NCBI RefSeq assembly: GCF_002072955.1
Contig: NZ_LPUF01000001.1
Span: 1,510,896-1,574,895, forward strand
Origin: Methyloprofundus sedimenti
GTDB lineage: Bacteria > Pseudomonadota > Gammaproteobacteria > Methylococcales > Methylomonadaceae
Direction: 5' to 3'
Length of the DNA: 64,000 nucleotides
Every line of letters begins with the position of its first letter. Within the stretch, counting starts at the first letter, position 1. Shown one piece after another: positions 57,120 to 64,000 of the stretch. Both the position numbers and the translations under genes were made by a program. The notes under the pieces were generated by a model. The model had not been told where the DNA came from. It made no database searches and saw only the letters and a program-made list of their open reading frames with translations.

Positions 57120-57443
57120 AAACCACAGAGCAAAGCTGTTAAAGCCTATAAACAATTTGTTAGCCAGGGGCGCGGACAGTCATCGCCTTGGGAGGCTTTG
57201 AGAAATAAAGTGTTTTTAGGTAATGAGCATTTTGTTGAATCTATGCAGTGTTTGTTAAATGCAGAACAGGACTTAAGCGAAATCCCAAGGGCTCAACGAA
57301 GGAGGATTGTCAAACCACTGTCTGAATATGCTGAAAAATATATTCTAAATGACGCTTCCACGATTAGTGGAATTATTAATAATCATAGTTCAAATACCTG
57401 CCCCCTTTCTCTTCCGAAATGGCTATCTTCACCAATTATCTGA
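57120..57443 (+). pseudogene. REP-associated tyrosine transposase, C-terminal remnant
   Basis: The frame opens after a stop at 57117 and reads KPQSKAVKAYKQFVSQGRG then WEALRNKVFLGNEHFVESMQ, the region that follows the HUH core in RAYT proteins. The catalytic N-terminal half is missing. The tail drifts into unrelated residues after ~57380. An intact RAYT of the same broad family is at 63598. Confidence 0.6.
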
Positions 57444-57612: not shown

Positions 57613-60600
57613 ATGGCAACATTCTCTAACTTTTTAAGTTCATTTGACCCTGAAAAAAAGGGCATCCAATTTGAACATTTCGTTAAGTGGTTTCTAAAAA
57701 ATGACCCTGAATGGTCTACACAAATTGATCAAGTTTGGTTATGGGACGAATACCCAGACCGATGGGGACGTGATTGTGGTATTGATCTTGTTTTTAAACA
57801 TAAAAATAACGATATTTGGGCAGTTCAGGCAAAATGCTATTCTCCTGAGTATTCTATCAGCAAATCTGATGTCGATAAATTTCTAAGTGAATCAAATCGA
57901 ACAGGAATTGATAAAAGGCTATTAATTGCAACGACAGATCAAATGGGCCAAAATGCCAAGCAAGTCTGTCATGCTCAAGAAAAGACGGTTACACATTTTT
58001 TCCTTTCTGATTTTGATCAAGCTGCAATTGAATACCCTGAACACATATCTGCACTCAATACCGCAAAACGAAAATCACGACCGATCCCTCGACCACACCA
58101 GATAGAGGCCATTGATGCTGTAGAAAAAGGCTTTAAAAATAATGGACGTGGTCAATTGATCATGGCTTGTGGCACGGGGAAGACATATACAACACTCTGG
58201 ATTAAAGAACGCCAGGCGGCTGTATCAACACTGGTATTGCTCCCGTCACTCGGATTATTATCACAGTCGTTAAGAGAATGGACATATGCTGCGAATACAC
58301 CTTTTGATGTTTTATGTATATGTTCAGACCAAACCGTGGGCAAGCAATCAAGTGAAGATGACATAATTCACTCTGTAAAAGACCTCTCATTCCCTGTTAC
58401 ATCGGATATGCATATCATCAGCCAGTTTTTAAAAGGTTCTGGTAATAAAGTTATTTTCTCAACCTATCAATCATCTCCTATTATTGCTGATGCTCAACGT
58501 GATAATAACATTCCAGAGTTTGATTTAGTGATTGCCGATGAAGCGCATCGCTGTACAGGTAAAGCTGGAAGCGATTTTACGACGATATTAGATCAATCCC
58601 GAATCAGAGCAAACAAAAGATTATTCACAACAGCAACGCCAAAAACTTATTCTGCAAATCTAAAAAAGAAAGCTAGTGAAATGGGCGTGGATGTCACAGG
58701 AATGGATGATGAATCTGTTTTTGGCAAAGTCCTGTATGCCTTAACATTTGGTGAGGCCATCAAGCGTAAATTATTAACCGATTATCAGATGGTACTAGTT
58801 GGTGTTGATAATCCGATGATAGCGCAATGGATACAACAAAGTAAACTGGTAAAAACAGAAGCTGGTGACACACAGGATGCAAAATCATTAGCATCACAAA
58901 TAGGGCTTATTAAGGCCATTAAAGACTATGACCTGAAGAGGATGATCAGTTTTCATAGTCGGGTAAATAGAGCAGAAACATTTGCCTCAGAGATACAGAA
59001 TTCGATTGATTTAATCGAGGAAGAATACCGTCCTGATGGGAAAATCTGGGCTGACTTTGTATCCGGAAAAATGACTACCCATAAAAGACGCTTAAAGCTT
59101 GATCAACTCAAAAGCCTTACTATAAGTGAGCGTGGACTATTATCGAATGCAAGATGCTTATCTGAAGGGGTTGATGTTCCCTCACTGGATGGTGTGGCAT
59201 TTATAGATCCAAGAAGTAGTCATGTTGATATTATCCAGGCAGTTGGCAGAGCCATCCGCTTAAGCGATGACAAGACTATTGGCACCATTATTGTCCCTGT
59301 ATTTATTGAAGATGGGGATAATATAGAATCATCCATGCAATCCAGTCACTTTAAGCCTGTATGGGAAGTGCTGAATGCCTTGAAATCACATGATGAAGTG
59401 CTGGCATACGAACTGGATGAATTTCGTACTAATTTAGGTAGGGGCAGTAATTTAGCTAATTCTGAAAAAAGTTTTTCAAAAATTGCTTTTGATTTACCTA
59501 CTACGATAGATGAGTCATTTTCAGAATCATTAAAAACATATCTTGTTGAAAAAACCACATCGTCCTGGCATTTCTGGTTTGGGTTGTTGGAGGTGTTTGT
59601 TGAACAAGAAGGTCATGCAAGAGTTCCTAGCAAATATAAAACAGCAGATGGATTTAAATTAGGTAATTGGCTCAGTAATCAAAAGGCAAAGAAAAAGTCA
59701 TTAACTGATGAACAGCTTTCAAGGTTGGAATCATTAGAGGGCTGGGTTTGGGATGTATCAGCATTTCAATGGGAAGAAGGTTTTTCTCGTTTAGAACAAT
59801 ATGTTCAACAGAAAGGGTATGCACGAGTGCCTTCAAACTATAAAACATCGGATGGATATAAATTAGGTGGTTGGGTTAATAATCAAAAGACGGTGAGAAA
59901 GTCTTTGACTAATGAACAACTTTCAAGACTGGAATCGTTAGAGGGCTGGGCCTGGGATGTGTCAGCATTTCAATGGGAAGAAGGTTTTTCTCGTTTAGAA
60001 CAATATGTTCAACAGAAAGGTCATGCACGAGTTTCTAAGGAATATAAAACAGTAGATGGATATAAATTGGGGCAATGGGTCAGCACTCAAAAGCAAAATA
60101 AAACACAGTTAACAGCAGAACGGATAACCAAATTGAAATCGTTAGAGGGCTGGGTTTGGGACTTGTTGGAGTTTCAATGGGAGCAAGGCTTTTCATATAT
60201 AAAAAAATACGCCCAAGAGCATGGCCATACAAGAGTTTCTGGTGATTACAAAACAGCAGATGGGTTTAATTTAGGTAATTGGGTCACTAATCAAAGAGCT
60301 AAAATGGGACAATTAACACCTGAAAGACTTTCAAGACTGGAATCGTTGGATGGCTGGGTTTGGGGTGTATCAGCATTTCAATGGGAACAAGGTTTTAATT
60401 ATTTAAAGTTGTATACTCTACAAAAAGGTCACGCAAGAGTACTCTGGAATTATAAAACATCAGATGGATATAACCTGGGGCAATGGGTTAATATGCAAAG
60501 ACGTAATAGGCACCAATTATCTTCGAAACAAATTTCACTATTAGAGGCGTTAGATGACTGGGTTTGGGGGTTATTTGATTTGAAATGGGAACAGGGTTTT

Positions 60601-60825
60601 TCTTATTTAGAAGAGTATATTTTACACGAAGGTCATGCAAGAGTTTCTGGTGATTACAAAACAGCAGATGGGTTTAATTTAGGTAATTGGGTCACTAATC
60701 AAAGAGTTAAAAGGAGGCAATTAACACCTGAAAGACTTTCAAGACTGGAATCGTTGGATGGCTGGGTTTGGAGCTTACTAGAGTTTAATTGGGAGCAAGG
60801 CTTTGCTTATCTAGAAGAATATACC
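57613..60825 (+). pseudogene. Restriction-endonuclease-like/DEAD helicase with helicase-associated repeats, 5' part (disrupted by IS3)
   Basis: 1071 codons up to the IS3 insertion; the reading frame runs a few codons into the element before stopping. Residues ~40-80 form an Mrr-like nuclease core (GRDCGIDLV ... VQAKCY, i.e. D-x(n)-QxK). Superfamily 2 helicase: Walker A MACGTGKTYT (~184-193), DEAHR (309-313), motif VI QAVGRAIR. From residue ~652 begin 68-residue helicase-associated (HA) repeats, each W-E-x-GF...GHARV..YKT.DGY.LG.WV..Q...LT...L..LESL.GWVWD. Six complete repeats plus 12 residues of the seventh precede the break. Probably an anti-phage or DNA-restriction enzyme. Confidence 0.85.
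59566..60825 (+). repeat. Tandem 204-bp coding repeats (HA domain), repeats 1-6 and start of 7
   Basis: Starts at 59566, 59770, 59974, 60178, 60382, 60586 and 60790: exactly 204 bp (68 codons) each. Repeats 4 and 6 share long near-identical stretches (for example AATTTAGGTAATTGGGTCAC), pointing to recent internal duplication. Confidence 0.92.
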
Positions 60826-60896
60826 TGTAGTGGTCTAATAATCCTGTACTAAACGATAGGAGTTTATAATAACCCCTTAATCAAAGATGCAGACCA

Positions 60897-61199
60897 ATGA
60901 GTAAACGAAAAAGTTATACAACAGAATTTAAACATGAAGCGGCCAGTCTGGTATTAGATCAGGCATATTCCATAAATGATGCTTGCGAAGCTATGGGCGT
61001 TGGAACTACAGCAATGCGCCGTTGGGTCACTCAATTAAAAGAAGAGCGTCATGGTGTTACGCCAAAAGGAAGCCGAGCGATTACTTCTGATCAGCAAAAG
61101 ATTCAAGATTTGGAAAGTCAGATAAAGAAACTAAAGAGGGAGAAAGAGATTTTAAAAAAGGCTTCAGCTCTCTTAATATCGGACGTGTATCAATTTTAA
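60897..61199 (+). CDS. IS3 transposase OrfA
   Basis: 100 residues. An N-terminal helix-turn-helix (SYTTEFKHEAASLVLDQAYSINDACEAMGVGTTAMRRW) and a leucine zipper (QKIQDLESQIKKLKREKEIL). An A-AAA-AAG slippery heptamer at 61154-61160 lies in the correct frame for programmed -1 frameshifting into orfB, and the -1 frame is open all the way. Stop TAA overlaps the orfB ATG. Confidence 0.93.
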   Translation: MSKRKSYTTEFKHEAASLVLDQAYSINDACEAMGVGTTAMRRWVTQLKEERHGVTPKGSRAITSDQQKIQDLESQIKKLKREKEILKKASALLISDVYQF

Positions 61200-62038
61200 T
61201 GCTAATTGATGAGTTAAGAGAGCAATACAAACAATGCGAATTATTGCAAACATTTGAGATGAGTCGTAGTAGTTACAACTACCACCGTAAGCATGCAAAC
61301 AAGGCAGATCCTGAGCGAGACAGGTTAAAATCCAAGGTTATTGCGTTACATGAAGCGAGCCGCAGTTCAGCGGGGAGTCGTACCCTTTCTGCTCAATTAA
61401 AACAGCAAGGTGAATCTGTTGGACGCTTCAAAACACGGAGTTTAATGCAAGAAGCGGAGCTGACAAGTAAACAGCCAGGCGCACATCGTTACAAGGTGGC
61501 TGAAAAGCCATCAAACATAGCGGATAACCACTTAAACCGTGAATTTTCTACCGAACTGGCTAATCAAGTTTGGTGTGGTGATGTCACCTATATTTGGTCG
61601 GGTACAGGCTGGATATATTTAGCATTGGTGATTGATTTAAATGCGCGCCGTATCGTGGGGTGGGCTTGCTCAACTAGTCCTGACTCAGTATTGACTACAC
61701 GAGCGTTAAAATTAGCTTATGCGGCTAGAGGAGAGCCCAAGAACTTGATGTTTCATTCTGATCAGGGGTGCCATTACACCAGTAAGGTATTCCAGCAGCA
61801 ATTGTCGGAATATGAGATCAAGCAAAGCATGAGTCGGCGTGGTAACTGTTGGGATAATGCACCGATGGAGCGTTGTTTTAGAAGCTTTAAATCTGAATGG
61901 ATGCCTAAGACTTTTTATTCATCTTATGAACAGGCAGAGAAAGATATTATGCAATACATCAAGTATTACAATAGTTTCCGTGTACATAGTTATAACAATT
62001 ATTTAACCCCAATCCAAGCGGAGAAAGAAGCCGCTTAA
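61199..62038 (+). CDS. IS3 transposase OrfB (DDE integrase core)
   Basis: 279 residues. HTH_21-like start, then the rve core: QVWCGDVTYIWSGTGWIYLALVIDL (first Asp), FHSDQGCHYTS (second Asp), NCWDNAPMERCFRSFKSEW (Glu). Likely made as an OrfAB fusion by -1 frameshift at 61154-61160. All catalytic residues are present, so the element should be active. Confidence 0.95.
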   Translation: MLIDELREQYKQCELLQTFEMSRSSYNYHRKHANKADPERDRLKSKVIALHEASRSSAGSRTLSAQLKQQGESVGRFKTRSLMQEAELTSKQPGAHRYKVAEKPSNIADNHLNREFSTELANQVWCGDVTYIWSGTGWIYLALVIDLNARRIVGWACSTSPDSVLTTRALKLAYAARGEPKNLMFHSDQGCHYTSKVFQQQLSEYEIKQSMSRRGNCWDNAPMERCFRSFKSEWMPKTFYSSYEQAEKDIMQYIKYYNSFRVHSYNNYLTPIQAEKEAA

Positions 62039-62080
62039 AAAACCGATCGTTATGTACGAATTTACTTGACCACTACAACC

Positions 62081-62644
62081 CAACAAGAAGGTCATGCAAG
62101 AGTGCCTTCAAACTATAAAACATCGGATGGATATAAATTAGGTATTTGGGTCAGTACTCAAAGGCGTGGTAGGGAACAATTAGCAGCGAAATATATATCA
62201 CAATTAGAATTATTACCAGGATGGGGTTGGGATCCATTAGAGTTTCAATGGGATCAAGGATATTCCTATCTAGAGAAGTATGTTCAACAGCAAGGTCATG
62301 CAAGAGTTCCTTCAACGTATAAAACCGAAGATGAATATTATTTGGGGAGATGGGTTAGGACCCAAAGAAAACAAATAGAACAATTAACACCTGAACGACT
62401 TTCAAAATTAGAATCACTGGAGAGTTGGGTTTGGGATCCATTAGAATTTAATTGGGAAGAGGGCTTTGCTTATTTAAAGCAATATGTTCAACAACACGGT
62501 CATTCAAGAATTCCATATAAATATAAAGTAGCGGATGGGTTTAACTTGGGACGTTGGGCTGCTAGGCAAAGGAGAAATAAGGTTCAATTAACAGCAGAAC
62601 GGATATTGAAACTAGATTCGATAAGTTTTGATTGGGTGGTATGA
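62081..62644 (+). pseudogene. Helicase-associated repeat protein, 3' part (repeats 7-9) after IS3
   Basis: 187 codons and a stop. Continues repeat 7 (QQEGHARVPSNYKTSDGYKL...), then repeat 8 from 62249 and repeat 9 from 62453, which ends early (KLDSISFDWVV). With the 5' part it gives a protein of ~1258 residues with nine HA repeats. A start codon in the IS3 end could make the fragment translatable by itself. Confidence 0.88.
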
Positions 62645-62649
62645 GAGTG

Positions 62650-62899
62650 ATCAAGGGGGCAGCCAGTAATACCGCTACCAGTGAAACATTAAGTCGTTGA
62701 ATTATAATGGTTAAGTATGAATATTTTTCATCTTTTCTAAATATATGATCGCTTTAGAAACAATGACTTTAACCGTTGTATATTATTTTTCTGGTACAAT
62801 TTTTAATAAACGATTTTCGTAAGCTATTGTTTGTCACTGTAGTGTATATTATTAATGATTTATTTGACTGGTAGCGGTATTACTGGCTGCCCCCTTGAT
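62650..62899 (+). repeat. MITE-like element with 33-bp perfect terminal inverted repeats
   Basis: Arms at 62650-62682 and 62867-62899 are exact complements, beginning ATCAAGGGGGCAGCCAGTAA. The 184-bp interior is AT-rich and non-coding. It begins five bases after the helicase stop. No clear target duplication. Confidence 0.85.
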
Positions 62900-62983
62900 T
62901 TACATGGAAAATTTGCTCTGCTTACGCACCGTAAATTCCCAGTGATGCTGAGCGTTATAATTTTTAGCAAATATGAGAAGTAG

Positions 62984-63597: not shown

Positions 63598-64000
63598 ATG
63601 GCTAGACCACTAAGGCTTGAATTTTCTGGCGCGTTGTATCATGTCACTTCCCGAGGAAATCGACAGGAAGCGATTTATGAAACCGATACCGACAGAGAAA
63701 ACTTTTTAACGATCTTATCTGAAGTGTGTAAGCGATATCATTGGCTCTGTCACGCCTATTGTCTGATGGGTAATCATTACCATTTACTGATTGAAACCCC
63801 CGAGGGGAATTTATCCCAGGGCATGCGGCAGTTAAACGGGAAATATACACAATCATTTAATCGTACTCATCAACATGTTGGGCATGTATTTCAAGGGCGT
63901 TATAAGGCCATCCTGGTGGATAAAGACAGCTATTTACTGGAATTATGCCGATATATCGTGCTGAATCCCGTGCGCGCTGGCATGGTGCGGTCGGCAAAAG
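63598..64000 (+). CDS. REP-associated tyrosine transposase (RAYT), 3' end outside window
   Basis: 134 codons visible from the ATG at 63598 (AAGGATAGCAAG is the SD). MARPLRLEFSGALYHVTSRGN is the canonical start. LMGNHYHLLIETPEGNLSQGM holds the HUH metal-binding pair HYH, and QGRYKAILVDKDSYLLELCRYIVLNPVRAGMV includes the catalytic Tyr region. A Y1 single-strand transposase that moves or maintains REP-type repeats. Confidence 0.95.
   Translation, partial: MARPLRLEFSGALYHVTSRGNRQEAIYETDTDRENFLTILSEVCKRYHWLCHAYCLMGNHYHLLIETPEGNLSQGMRQLNGKYTQSFNRTHQHVGHVFQGRYKAILVDKDSYLLELCRYIVLNPVRAGMVRSAK

What the first reader, a model, noticed from the sequence alone, without database searches (positions are those of the whole stretch)
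57613..62644. Nuclease-helicase with nine tandem 68-residue HA repeats
After an Mrr-like nuclease core and SF2 helicase, nine exact 204-bp units follow. Repeats 4 and 6 are nearly identical at the DNA level, so the array expands and contracts. Variable repeat number in a probable DNA-targeting enzyme suggests a selectable recognition surface, perhaps against phage. The tail alone is about half the protein. I know helicase-associated domains as a family, but not a defined system of this type.
Basis: partly seen in the sequence, partly recalled or inferred. Interest (0 to 1): 0.75.

Follow-up and report, generated by a model that had tools for sequence, protein, structure and literature searches.

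The report
Restriction motor with swappable recognition repeats
This gene (interrupted here by a mobile element) encodes a DNA-cutting motor like known bacterial restriction enzymes, but its methylating and DNA-reading part is replaced by a row of repeats whose most variable positions differ widely even between close relatives, so it may read foreign DNA without protective methylation; no experiment has tested this.

Summary
Units are exact in period, not in sequence. The core is that of Type ISP restriction-modification enzymes (LlaBIII, E 5e-91), but coupler, methyltransferase and specificity domain are absent and the HA array stands in their place. Among 32 homologous genes with core and HA in one closed frame, HA number runs from 1 to 13. 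Seven positions per repeat (two adjacent residues and one face of a putative helix) are hypervariable and acid-poor; 174 repeats show 173 distinct combinations. Homologs with cores up to 97% identical differ at most of these positions, whereas a fixed-order HA-repeat protein of other lineages conserves them. A sub-branch carries a different 73-residue repeat on the same core. Best reading: a solitary restriction-like nuclease-translocase with a modular, diversifying recognition array. DNA as ligand, phage as target and methylation-free self-avoidance are inferred, not shown.

The parts
57613..60852 (+). ORF: nuclease-motor core plus HA repeats 1-6 and the start of repeat 7 (1079 aa; last residues read from the IS)
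57697..58041 (+). Mrr_cat_2 nuclease domain (residues 29-143); D58, Q72, K74
   Evidence: residues kept in 37 of 39 array-type and 72 of 72 ISP-type cores
58087..59262 (+). SF2 motor: ResIII/DEAD (residues 159-344) and Helicase_C (448-550)
   Evidence: residues 10-604 match LlaBIII (4xqk)
59563..59766 (+). HA repeat 1
59767..59970 (+). HA repeat 2
59971..60174 (+). HA repeat 3 (50-nt exact run shared with repeat 2)
60175..60378 (+). HA repeat 4 (84% DNA identity to repeat 6, 69-nt exact run)
60379..60582 (+). HA repeat 5
60583..60786 (+). HA repeat 6
60787..60825 (+). first part of HA repeat 7, cut by the IS
60826..62077 (+). IS3-type element (orfA 60897-61199, orfB 61199-62038), target duplication ACC
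   Evidence: ten more copies of 1,163-1,250 bp at 98-100% identity in the genome
62078..62245 (+). rest of HA repeat 7
62246..62449 (+). HA repeat 8
62450..62644 (+). HA repeat 9 and stop codon

Best explanation
The gene belongs to a widespread, unnamed family of solitary single-chain restriction-like enzymes. Its first 600 residues are the Mrr nuclease and SF2 translocase of Type ISP enzymes (shown by sequence). In place of the ISP coupler, adenine methyltransferase and specificity domain it carries a tandem array of about 70-residue repeats: HA repeats here, a 73-residue repeat without detectable similarity to HA in one sub-branch (shown). In each HA repeat, two adjacent residues (24-25) and five on one side of a putative helix (36, 39, 40, 43, 44) form a hypervariable, acid-poor face (shown by sequence; the helix is inferred from periodicity). 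Inferred steps: each repeat contacts a few base pairs of DNA through that face; the array sums these into a long composite site; binding loads the motor, which translocates and lets the nuclease nick or cut, as in LlaBIII. Because no methyltransferase is fused and none was a constant neighbour among those examined, self would be spared because a long composite site is absent from the host genome rather than methylated. Duplication, deletion and exchange of repeats plus fast change at the seven positions would re-aim the enzyme against new phages or plasmids. In this strain the IS ends the ORF within repeat 7, leaving nuclease, motor and six complete repeats; since homologs have other repeat numbers, the short product is not necessarily dead.
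For: LlaBIII match E 5e-91 and LlaGI 1e-68. Four of four ISP-type relatives scanned have ISP_coupler and an N6_Mtase hit; the window and four of four array-type relatives scanned have neither. ISP-type cores are set off by one long branch, SH-aLRT 100; the second-repeat branch lies among HA-bearing rows; HA versus second repeat: no profile match. HA number 1-13 in 32 closed genes. Hypervariable positions found in 181 repeats of 27 arrays, recovered in two disjoint subsets; six of the seven are the top six in 85 repeats of HA proteins outside that set. Periodicity over 33-47 best at 98 degrees, permutation p 0.009, one of six stretches tried, uncorrected. Acidic share 2.9% at the five helix positions (5.6% at all seven) against 23.8% at 13 other variable sites that I picked by eye. 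pN/pS there 0.85-1.13 for pairs 60-80% identical against 0.26-0.35 elsewhere. 99 non-independent pairs with core identity 60-97%: mean identity 0.18 at these positions, 0.60 elsewhere, order correlation 0.47. Control HA-repeat protein: order correlation 1.00 in 23 of 27 pairs. DNA identity falls at the start of the array in five of seven pairs. Catalytic residues kept in 37 of 39.
Against: I found no binding, cleavage, ATPase or phage data for any member (paper searches). pN/pS near 1 fits relaxed constraint as well as diversifying selection, and it is 0.54 in the nine closest pairs. Type ISP cleavage needs two head-to-head sites; a very long site would rarely occur twice in a phage, so the cleavage mode would have to differ; the shortest arrays may not give a long site at all. 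A motif screen of 44 loci flagged nine ORFs as possible DNA methyltransferases; the three tested are (L055, L056, L070), the other six were not tested. Defence neighbours are not shown to be enriched: at least 82 of 146 PADLOC models hit come from one Gabija locus. The closest pair (L075/L077, core 98%) has the same array. Acidic residues are less rare (7.5%) at the helix positions of the outside HA proteins. Two Rhodococcus members have lost nuclease and motor residues but keep five repeats. The window copy is IS-interrupted, and several other loci are broken or cut by contig ends.
Confidence: 0.6

Rival explanations
1. Type IV-like enzyme: the array senses modified bases or a modified-base context in phage DNA, so no methyltransferase is needed, and array variation tracks different modifications.
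For: No methyltransferase in the protein. SauUSI is an ATP-dependent endonuclease (PMC7913695, seen only as a search listing with the start of the abstract); that it is modification-directed is recalled.
Against: Seven free positions per repeat and 173 distinct combinations in 174 repeats exceed what a few base modifications would ask for; no known modification-reading domain was found in the window protein.
Confidence: 0.12
2. The HA array is a general nucleic-acid or protein grip in a repair or plasmid-transfer helicase (as reported for TtrA in conjugation); its variable face is merely unconstrained.
For: 797 plasmid records match the protein, 510 of them Streptomyces or Pseudomonas (not all need be HA helicases), and the plasmid examples I read carry HA repeats on a helicase without a nuclease match; TtrA is described as a putative DEAD-box helicase required for conjugation of SLP2 (PMC8743542, passages; that it carries HA repeats is recalled); pN/pS is about 1 rather than clearly above it.
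Against: An unconstrained surface would not be expected to be poor in acidic residues (2.9% against 23.8%), to fall on nearly the same positions in HA proteins outside the family, or to be conserved in the fixed-order HA protein. The nuclease residues are conserved, and five of seven close pairs sit in unrelated upstream flanks.
Confidence: 0.14
3. The array recognises a phage protein or RNA rather than DNA, and the core then cuts nucleic acid.
For: Rapid diversification fits any arms race.
Against: In the Type ISP relatives the part that follows the motor reads the DNA target (PMC7049714, passages); the acid-poor, polar and basic face fits nucleic acid.
Confidence: 0.08
4. A split restriction-modification system: a separate methyltransferase encoded in trans protects the same sites.
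For: Methyltransferase genes near L055, L056, L070; an HA helicase on a Mycolicibacterium plasmid sits beside a gene annotated type ISP restriction/modification enzyme (L213).
Against: The three methyltransferases are of different kinds (D12, N6/N4, C5) and two of them lie by truncated cores; in 89 neighbours of 21 loci no Pfam family occurs more than twice; a trans methyltransferase would have to change with every array. Methyltransferases elsewhere in the genomes were not searched for.
Confidence: 0.06

Closest known systems
Type ISP restriction-modification enzymes (LlaBIII 4xqk, LlaGI 5ffj)
   Same: Mrr nuclease plus SF2 translocase over residues 10-604, conserved catalytic residues
   Different: No coupler (PF22240), no N6 methyltransferase, no Type_ISP_C; the array replaces them
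HA-domain helicases without the Mrr nuclease (examples on Streptomyces, Rhodococcus, Pseudomonas plasmids; TtrA probably belongs here, recalled)
   Same: SF2 helicase followed by HA repeats with nearly the same hypervariable positions
   Different: The plasmid examples read match the query from residue 129 or later; matches 32-36% identical, 42.5% for one shorter match
Fixed-order HA-repeat protein of other Pseudomonadota families (L225-L242)
   Same: 9-12 HA repeats in one protein
   Different: No or only remote (20-26%, 7 of 18) similarity to this core; order and variable positions conserved between related species; a sugar-metabolism-like gene beside it in the three cases scanned
SauUSI and other ATP-dependent restriction enzymes without a methyltransferase (recalled)
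   Same: Nuclease plus ATPase, no methyltransferase (recalled; SauUSI listed)
   Different: Recognise modified DNA; no tandem repeat array (recalled)
TAL effector, PUF and PPR repeat proteins (recalled)
   Same: Tandem units with a constant scaffold and a few variable positions
   Different: Different scaffold and length (68 residues here); ligand and code unknown here

Membership tests
Type ISP restriction-modification enzyme | Mrr-family nuclease at the N-terminus with conserved catalytic residues | tested here: met
   Mrr_cat_2 E 5e-36; D58, Q72, K74
Type ISP restriction-modification enzyme | SF2 helicase-like translocase next to the nuclease | tested here: met
   LlaBIII alignment over residues 10-604, E 5e-91
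Type ISP restriction-modification enzyme | Coupler domain (PF22240) | tested here: not met
   Absent from both ORFs and from the held genome
Type ISP restriction-modification enzyme | N6-adenine methyltransferase and Type_ISP_C specificity domain in the same chain | tested here: not met
   Absent from both ORFs at E 0.001; N6_Mtase hit in four of four ISP-type relatives, Type_ISP_C in the one full-length relative
Type ISP restriction-modification enzyme | Translocation and cleavage on head-to-head collision | not testable with these tools
   Needs biochemistry; property of LlaBIII from PMC7049714 (passages)
HA domain family PF03457 | Match above the curated cut-off | tested here: met
   Nine matches over cut-off
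TtrA (telomere-linked helicase) | Helicase gene near the ends of linear actinobacterial replicons, no nuclease | tested here: not met
   Nuclease present; locus lies near 1.57 Mb of contig C1, which also has matches up to 2.84 Mb, in a genome of the same family as Crenothrix sp. D3
Type IV (modification-dependent) restriction | Acts on modified DNA only | not testable with these tools
   No modification-reading domain seen
Modular repeat recognition protein (TALE-like) | Constant scaffold with few hypervariable positions per unit | tested here: met
Modular repeat recognition protein (TALE-like) | One-to-one code between variable residues and bases | not testable with these tools
   No ligand known

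The most novel reading that the evidence does not exclude
A bacterial enzyme family that restricts foreign DNA without any modification: a Type ISP nuclease-translocase aimed by a modular repeat array (HA, or a second repeat without detectable kinship) that reads a long composite DNA site, with a residue-to-base code at seven positions per repeat, re-aimed in evolution by shuffling and point change of repeats. HA repeats would then be a new natural programmable DNA-binding scaffold, shared with plasmid helicases that use nearly the same face.
Probability: 0.35. Interest if true: 0.93.

Novelty: new variant of a known kind. Interest (0 to 1): 0.8.

Why it matters
Restriction systems are usually described as cut-plus-protect pairs. 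A restriction-type motor with no modification partner and a diversifying repeat array would be a different solution to telling self from foreign DNA: a site too long to occur in the host. HA-bearing helicases also occur on plasmids of Rhodococcus, Streptomyces, Pseudomonas and others, yet I found no paper on what the HA repeat binds (searches only, some listings capped). The seven positions named here make its ligand directly testable, and if they form a code, HA arrays would join zinc fingers and TAL repeats as modular DNA readers.

Tried and rejected
That protein has no or only remote similarity to the core (20-26% in 7 of 18; one, L236, from query residue 43).

Hypervariability as an artefact of choosing the most variable columns: tested by disjoint subsets (12 and 15 arrays; all seven positions in both top tens) and by an outside set (85 repeats; the top six are six of the seven; position 25 ranks eleventh). 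In the fixed-order HA proteins the within-array ranking is less sharp (24, 25, 36, 39, 40 high; 43 and 44 not in the top 14). Both outside sets were aligned with a profile built from the first hits, which included some viral-contig repeats of the outside set. L174 of the outside set matches the query from residue 36, so it may have a nuclease.

A constant partner gene or defence island: in 89 of 172 chosen neighbours, from 21 of 22 loci, no Pfam family occurs more than twice and no PADLOC model more than three times (only the first 25 families are printed, most frequent first). PADLOC models hit at E 1e-10: 146 for those 89, 8 for 89 of 110 neighbours of the fixed-order HA proteins, 190 for 89 of 142 neighbours of ISP-type genes. 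The counts are inflated by redundant models (at least 82 of the 146 are Gabija and similar models hit by two proteins of L092), and I do not claim enrichment.

Relation between HA and the second repeat: no profile match, with small alignments. The second repeat has no Pfam or PDB match, and a further viral scan with it found only the contig already known (same contig as L140).

Residue covariation: pairs 36-40 and 40-43 are among the top 16, weak support for one surface; too few repeats to read a code. The first genome-contig scan with the single protein found nothing. The insertion site was not resolved by synteny: little beyond the DUF2959 gene is shared with two same-genus genomes.

Rows dropped before counts: L077 and L049 (near-copies), in the composition part, in the subset part and in the 174 repeats (they are kept, in the array count); repeats with many gaps; eight near-copies and every second remaining ISP row in the tree (80 of 121 cores); pairs under 60% core identity (35% for the control).
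Full report
What is there. ORF 57613-60852 encodes an Mrr_cat_2 nuclease, an SF2 helicase and six HA domains; ORF 62066-62644 encodes the end of the same array. The genome has nine HA matches in all, every one here. Between the ORFs sits an IS3-type element (60826-62077, 3-bp duplication ACC) with ten more copies of 1,163-1,250 bp at 98-100% identity in the genome, inserted in repeat 7. Units have an exact 204-bp period but 61-84% DNA identity; exact runs of 69 nt (repeats 4 and 6) and 50 nt (2 and 3) show mosaic exchange. The genome belongs to the same family as Crenothrix sp. D3: a same-family genome (G140) has a contig of 15,451 bp with the same 555-aa ORF as that strain's contig.

The core is that of Type ISP enzymes. 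The best solved relative by sequence is LlaBIII (4xqk), residues 10-604, E 5e-91, then LlaGI; PADLOC places the core in REase_MTase_IIG at E 5e-155. Type ISP enzymes are single chains of Mrr nuclease, SF2 ATPase, coupler, methyltransferase and recognition domain (PMC4666363, abstract); target binding by methyltransferase and recognition domain stimulates the ATPase, and cleavage needs two converging translocating enzymes (PMC7049714, passages). The window protein has no coupler, methyltransferase or Type_ISP_C, and the genome has no ISP coupler. Of eight relatives scanned, the four ISP-type all have ISP_coupler and an N6_Mtase hit (below the curated cut-off in one), and the four array-type have neither.

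Distribution. In the window's order 26 of 301 genomes, its own included, match at E 1e-60, counting ISP-type relatives; of 61 nearest genomes 3, its own included, match the core at E 1e-20, and none of the 17 other same-genus genomes does. The array-type ones come from Sulfurimicrobium, Rhodocyclales, Geobacter, Gallionella, Desulfogranum, Rubrivivax, Prochlorococcus, Mycobacterium, Chlamydiae, Planctomycetes and others; most of the remainder are ISP-type. In a tree of 80 cores the ISP-type side is set off by one long branch with SH-aLRT 100, and the array-type side does not follow host taxonomy. HA number in 32 genes with core and array in one closed frame, of 56 loci examined (near-copies included): 7 in eight genes, 5 in seven, 8 in four, 9 in four, 3 in three, 6 in two, 1 in two, 4 in one and 13 in one; the lowest counts may be cut or frameshifted genes. 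The other 24 loci are cut by contig ends, broken, or carry the second repeat or no nuclease match.

A second array on the same core. L081, L082 and L140 (two planctomycetes and a viral contig), with a broken chlamydial relative L122, carry on the same core a 73-residue tandem repeat. It has no Pfam family, no PDB match and no profile similarity to HA. Its most variable positions (26, 27, 44, 48, 51, 52, and also 76, 77) again include adjacent residues and a helix-like spacing (21 repeats only). The three that could be placed lie among HA-bearing rows in the tree. That the core is joined to two tandem arrays without detectable kinship argues that what it needs is a modular reader.

Where repeats differ. 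In 181 full repeats of 27 arrays the positions that differ most between repeats of one array are 24, 25, 36, 39, 40, 43 and 44 (differences 0.81-0.88), next to W37 (180 of 181) and conserved Q41-R42. Spacing i, i+3, i+4, i+7, i+8 is one face of a helix; variability over 33-47 peaks at 98 degrees (permutation p 0.009, one of six stretches tried). The five helix positions are 2.9% acidic and 49% polar, all seven 5.6% and 45%, against 23.8% and 27% at 13 other variable sites picked by eye. Twelve distant and fifteen nearer arrays rank the same positions, and pN/pS (uncorrected) there is 0.85-1.13 against 0.26-0.35 elsewhere for pairs 60-80% identical, but 0.54 against 0.26 for the nine closest pairs. 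In 85 repeats from HA proteins outside the main set (plasmid helicases and viral-contig relatives) the top six positions are 40, 36, 24, 44, 43, 39, with 7.5% acidic residues at the helix positions; in two of these arrays the repeats differ at 60-64% of the seven positions and 11-15% of the rest. In the main set the seven positions differ more than the rest in 27 of 28 arrays, and 174 repeats show 173 distinct combinations.

Arrays change faster than cores. In 99 pairs (not independent) with core identity 60-97% the best assignment of repeats gives mean identity 0.18 at the seven positions and 0.60 elsewhere, with order correlation 0.47. For L046/L049 the cores are 96.6% identical and the repeats share 10-21% of those positions by two ways of matching; L049 has only three repeats, the last incomplete. 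At the DNA level seven close pairs were laid out: core identity is mostly 0.84-0.98 and falls at the array in five; L075/L077 shows no fall, and in L046/L055 the second gene ends before the array. Upstream flanks are unrelated in five (in L046/L049 and L046/L055 from a few bases before the start codon); L060/L063 share about 470 nt and L075/L077 about 1.1 kb. This suggests that the gene often travels alone. The exception L075/L077 (core 98%) has arrays that agree. As control, an HA-repeat protein of several other Pseudomonadota families keeps order (correlation 1.00 in 23 of 27 pairs) and conserves the seven positions about as well as the rest where the part before the array is 0.45-0.90 identical (0.56-0.97 against 0.59-0.96); in the four more distant pairs they are less conserved (0.31-0.43 against 0.47-0.53). 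It lies beside a gene with aldolase-II and short-chain dehydrogenase domains in the three cases scanned.

Mechanism. Shown: ISP-like core with conserved catalytic residues (37 of 39 array-type), array in place of methyltransferase and recognition domain, and a fast-changing face. Inferred: the face reads DNA; the array loads the motor; the nuclease cuts or nicks; self is spared by site length. If each repeat reads two to four base pairs (a guess from unit size and seven positions), four to nine repeats give sites of about 8-36 bp, and only the longer end would be absent from a 4-Mb genome by chance, so the shortest arrays are a difficulty for this reading. A very long site also fits poorly with cleavage on head-to-head collision of two bound enzymes. 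Both are open.

Context. Neighbours include Gabija (L092), a HEPN_AbiU2 protein (L046), a NACHT protein (L013) and a D12 methyltransferase beside a truncated core (L055), but also housekeeping genes such as an aminotransferase and ribonucleotide reductase. Counts against two controls are given in Tried and rejected; I do not claim enrichment.

Novelty. Searches of the held paper library listed no paper on HA repeats as recognition modules or on an ISP-like enzyme with a repeat array; some listings were capped, subscription journals are mostly missing, and only listings and abstract starts were seen in these searches. I call it a new variant of a known kind (Type ISP motor) with a possibly new mode of recognition.

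Noticed in passing
57198-57440 and from 63598: The small ORF upstream of the helicase looks like a remnant of the C-terminus of the Y1-transposase-like (RAYT-type, recalled) gene that starts at 63598: its residues 1-54 are 89% identical to a match about 7 kb downstream in a 287-aa frame. The helicase region thus lies between two related mobile-gene pieces.
   Followed up: partly
62645-62905: Just after the helicase stop, a non-coding element of about 250 bp bounded by a 37-bp inverted repeat; two related copies (85% and 70%) and several solo ends elsewhere in the genome: a MITE-like element.
   Followed up: partly
L014, L015 (Rhodococcus plasmids): Two members, 96% identical in the core, have lost nuclease (Q72/K74 to T) and motor residues (K190 to R, D309, H312, G545, R546) yet keep five HA repeats, beside the same PAS-ANTAR gene and small ORF: a possible binding-only derivative.
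   Followed up: partly
L213, L207: A Mycolicibacterium plasmid has an HA helicase directly after a gene annotated type ISP restriction/modification enzyme; a Tsukamurella plasmid has four HA-repeat genes within 6.7 kb, one small gene between them.
   Followed up: no
L225-L242: An HA-repeat protein in frames of 1245-1593 aa with 9-12 repeats in conserved order, no Pfam helicase domain in the one scanned, next to an aldolase-II/short-chain dehydrogenase gene in the three cases scanned; function unknown.
   Followed up: partly
L055: A core that ends near residue 497 is followed directly by a D12 adenine methyltransferase gene and another ORF, as if an unrelated restriction-modification system had replaced the array end.
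   Followed up: no
L065:3663-7688: Ribonucleotide reductase gene with an intein (LAGLIDADG and splicing domains) near an array-type gene.
   Followed up: no
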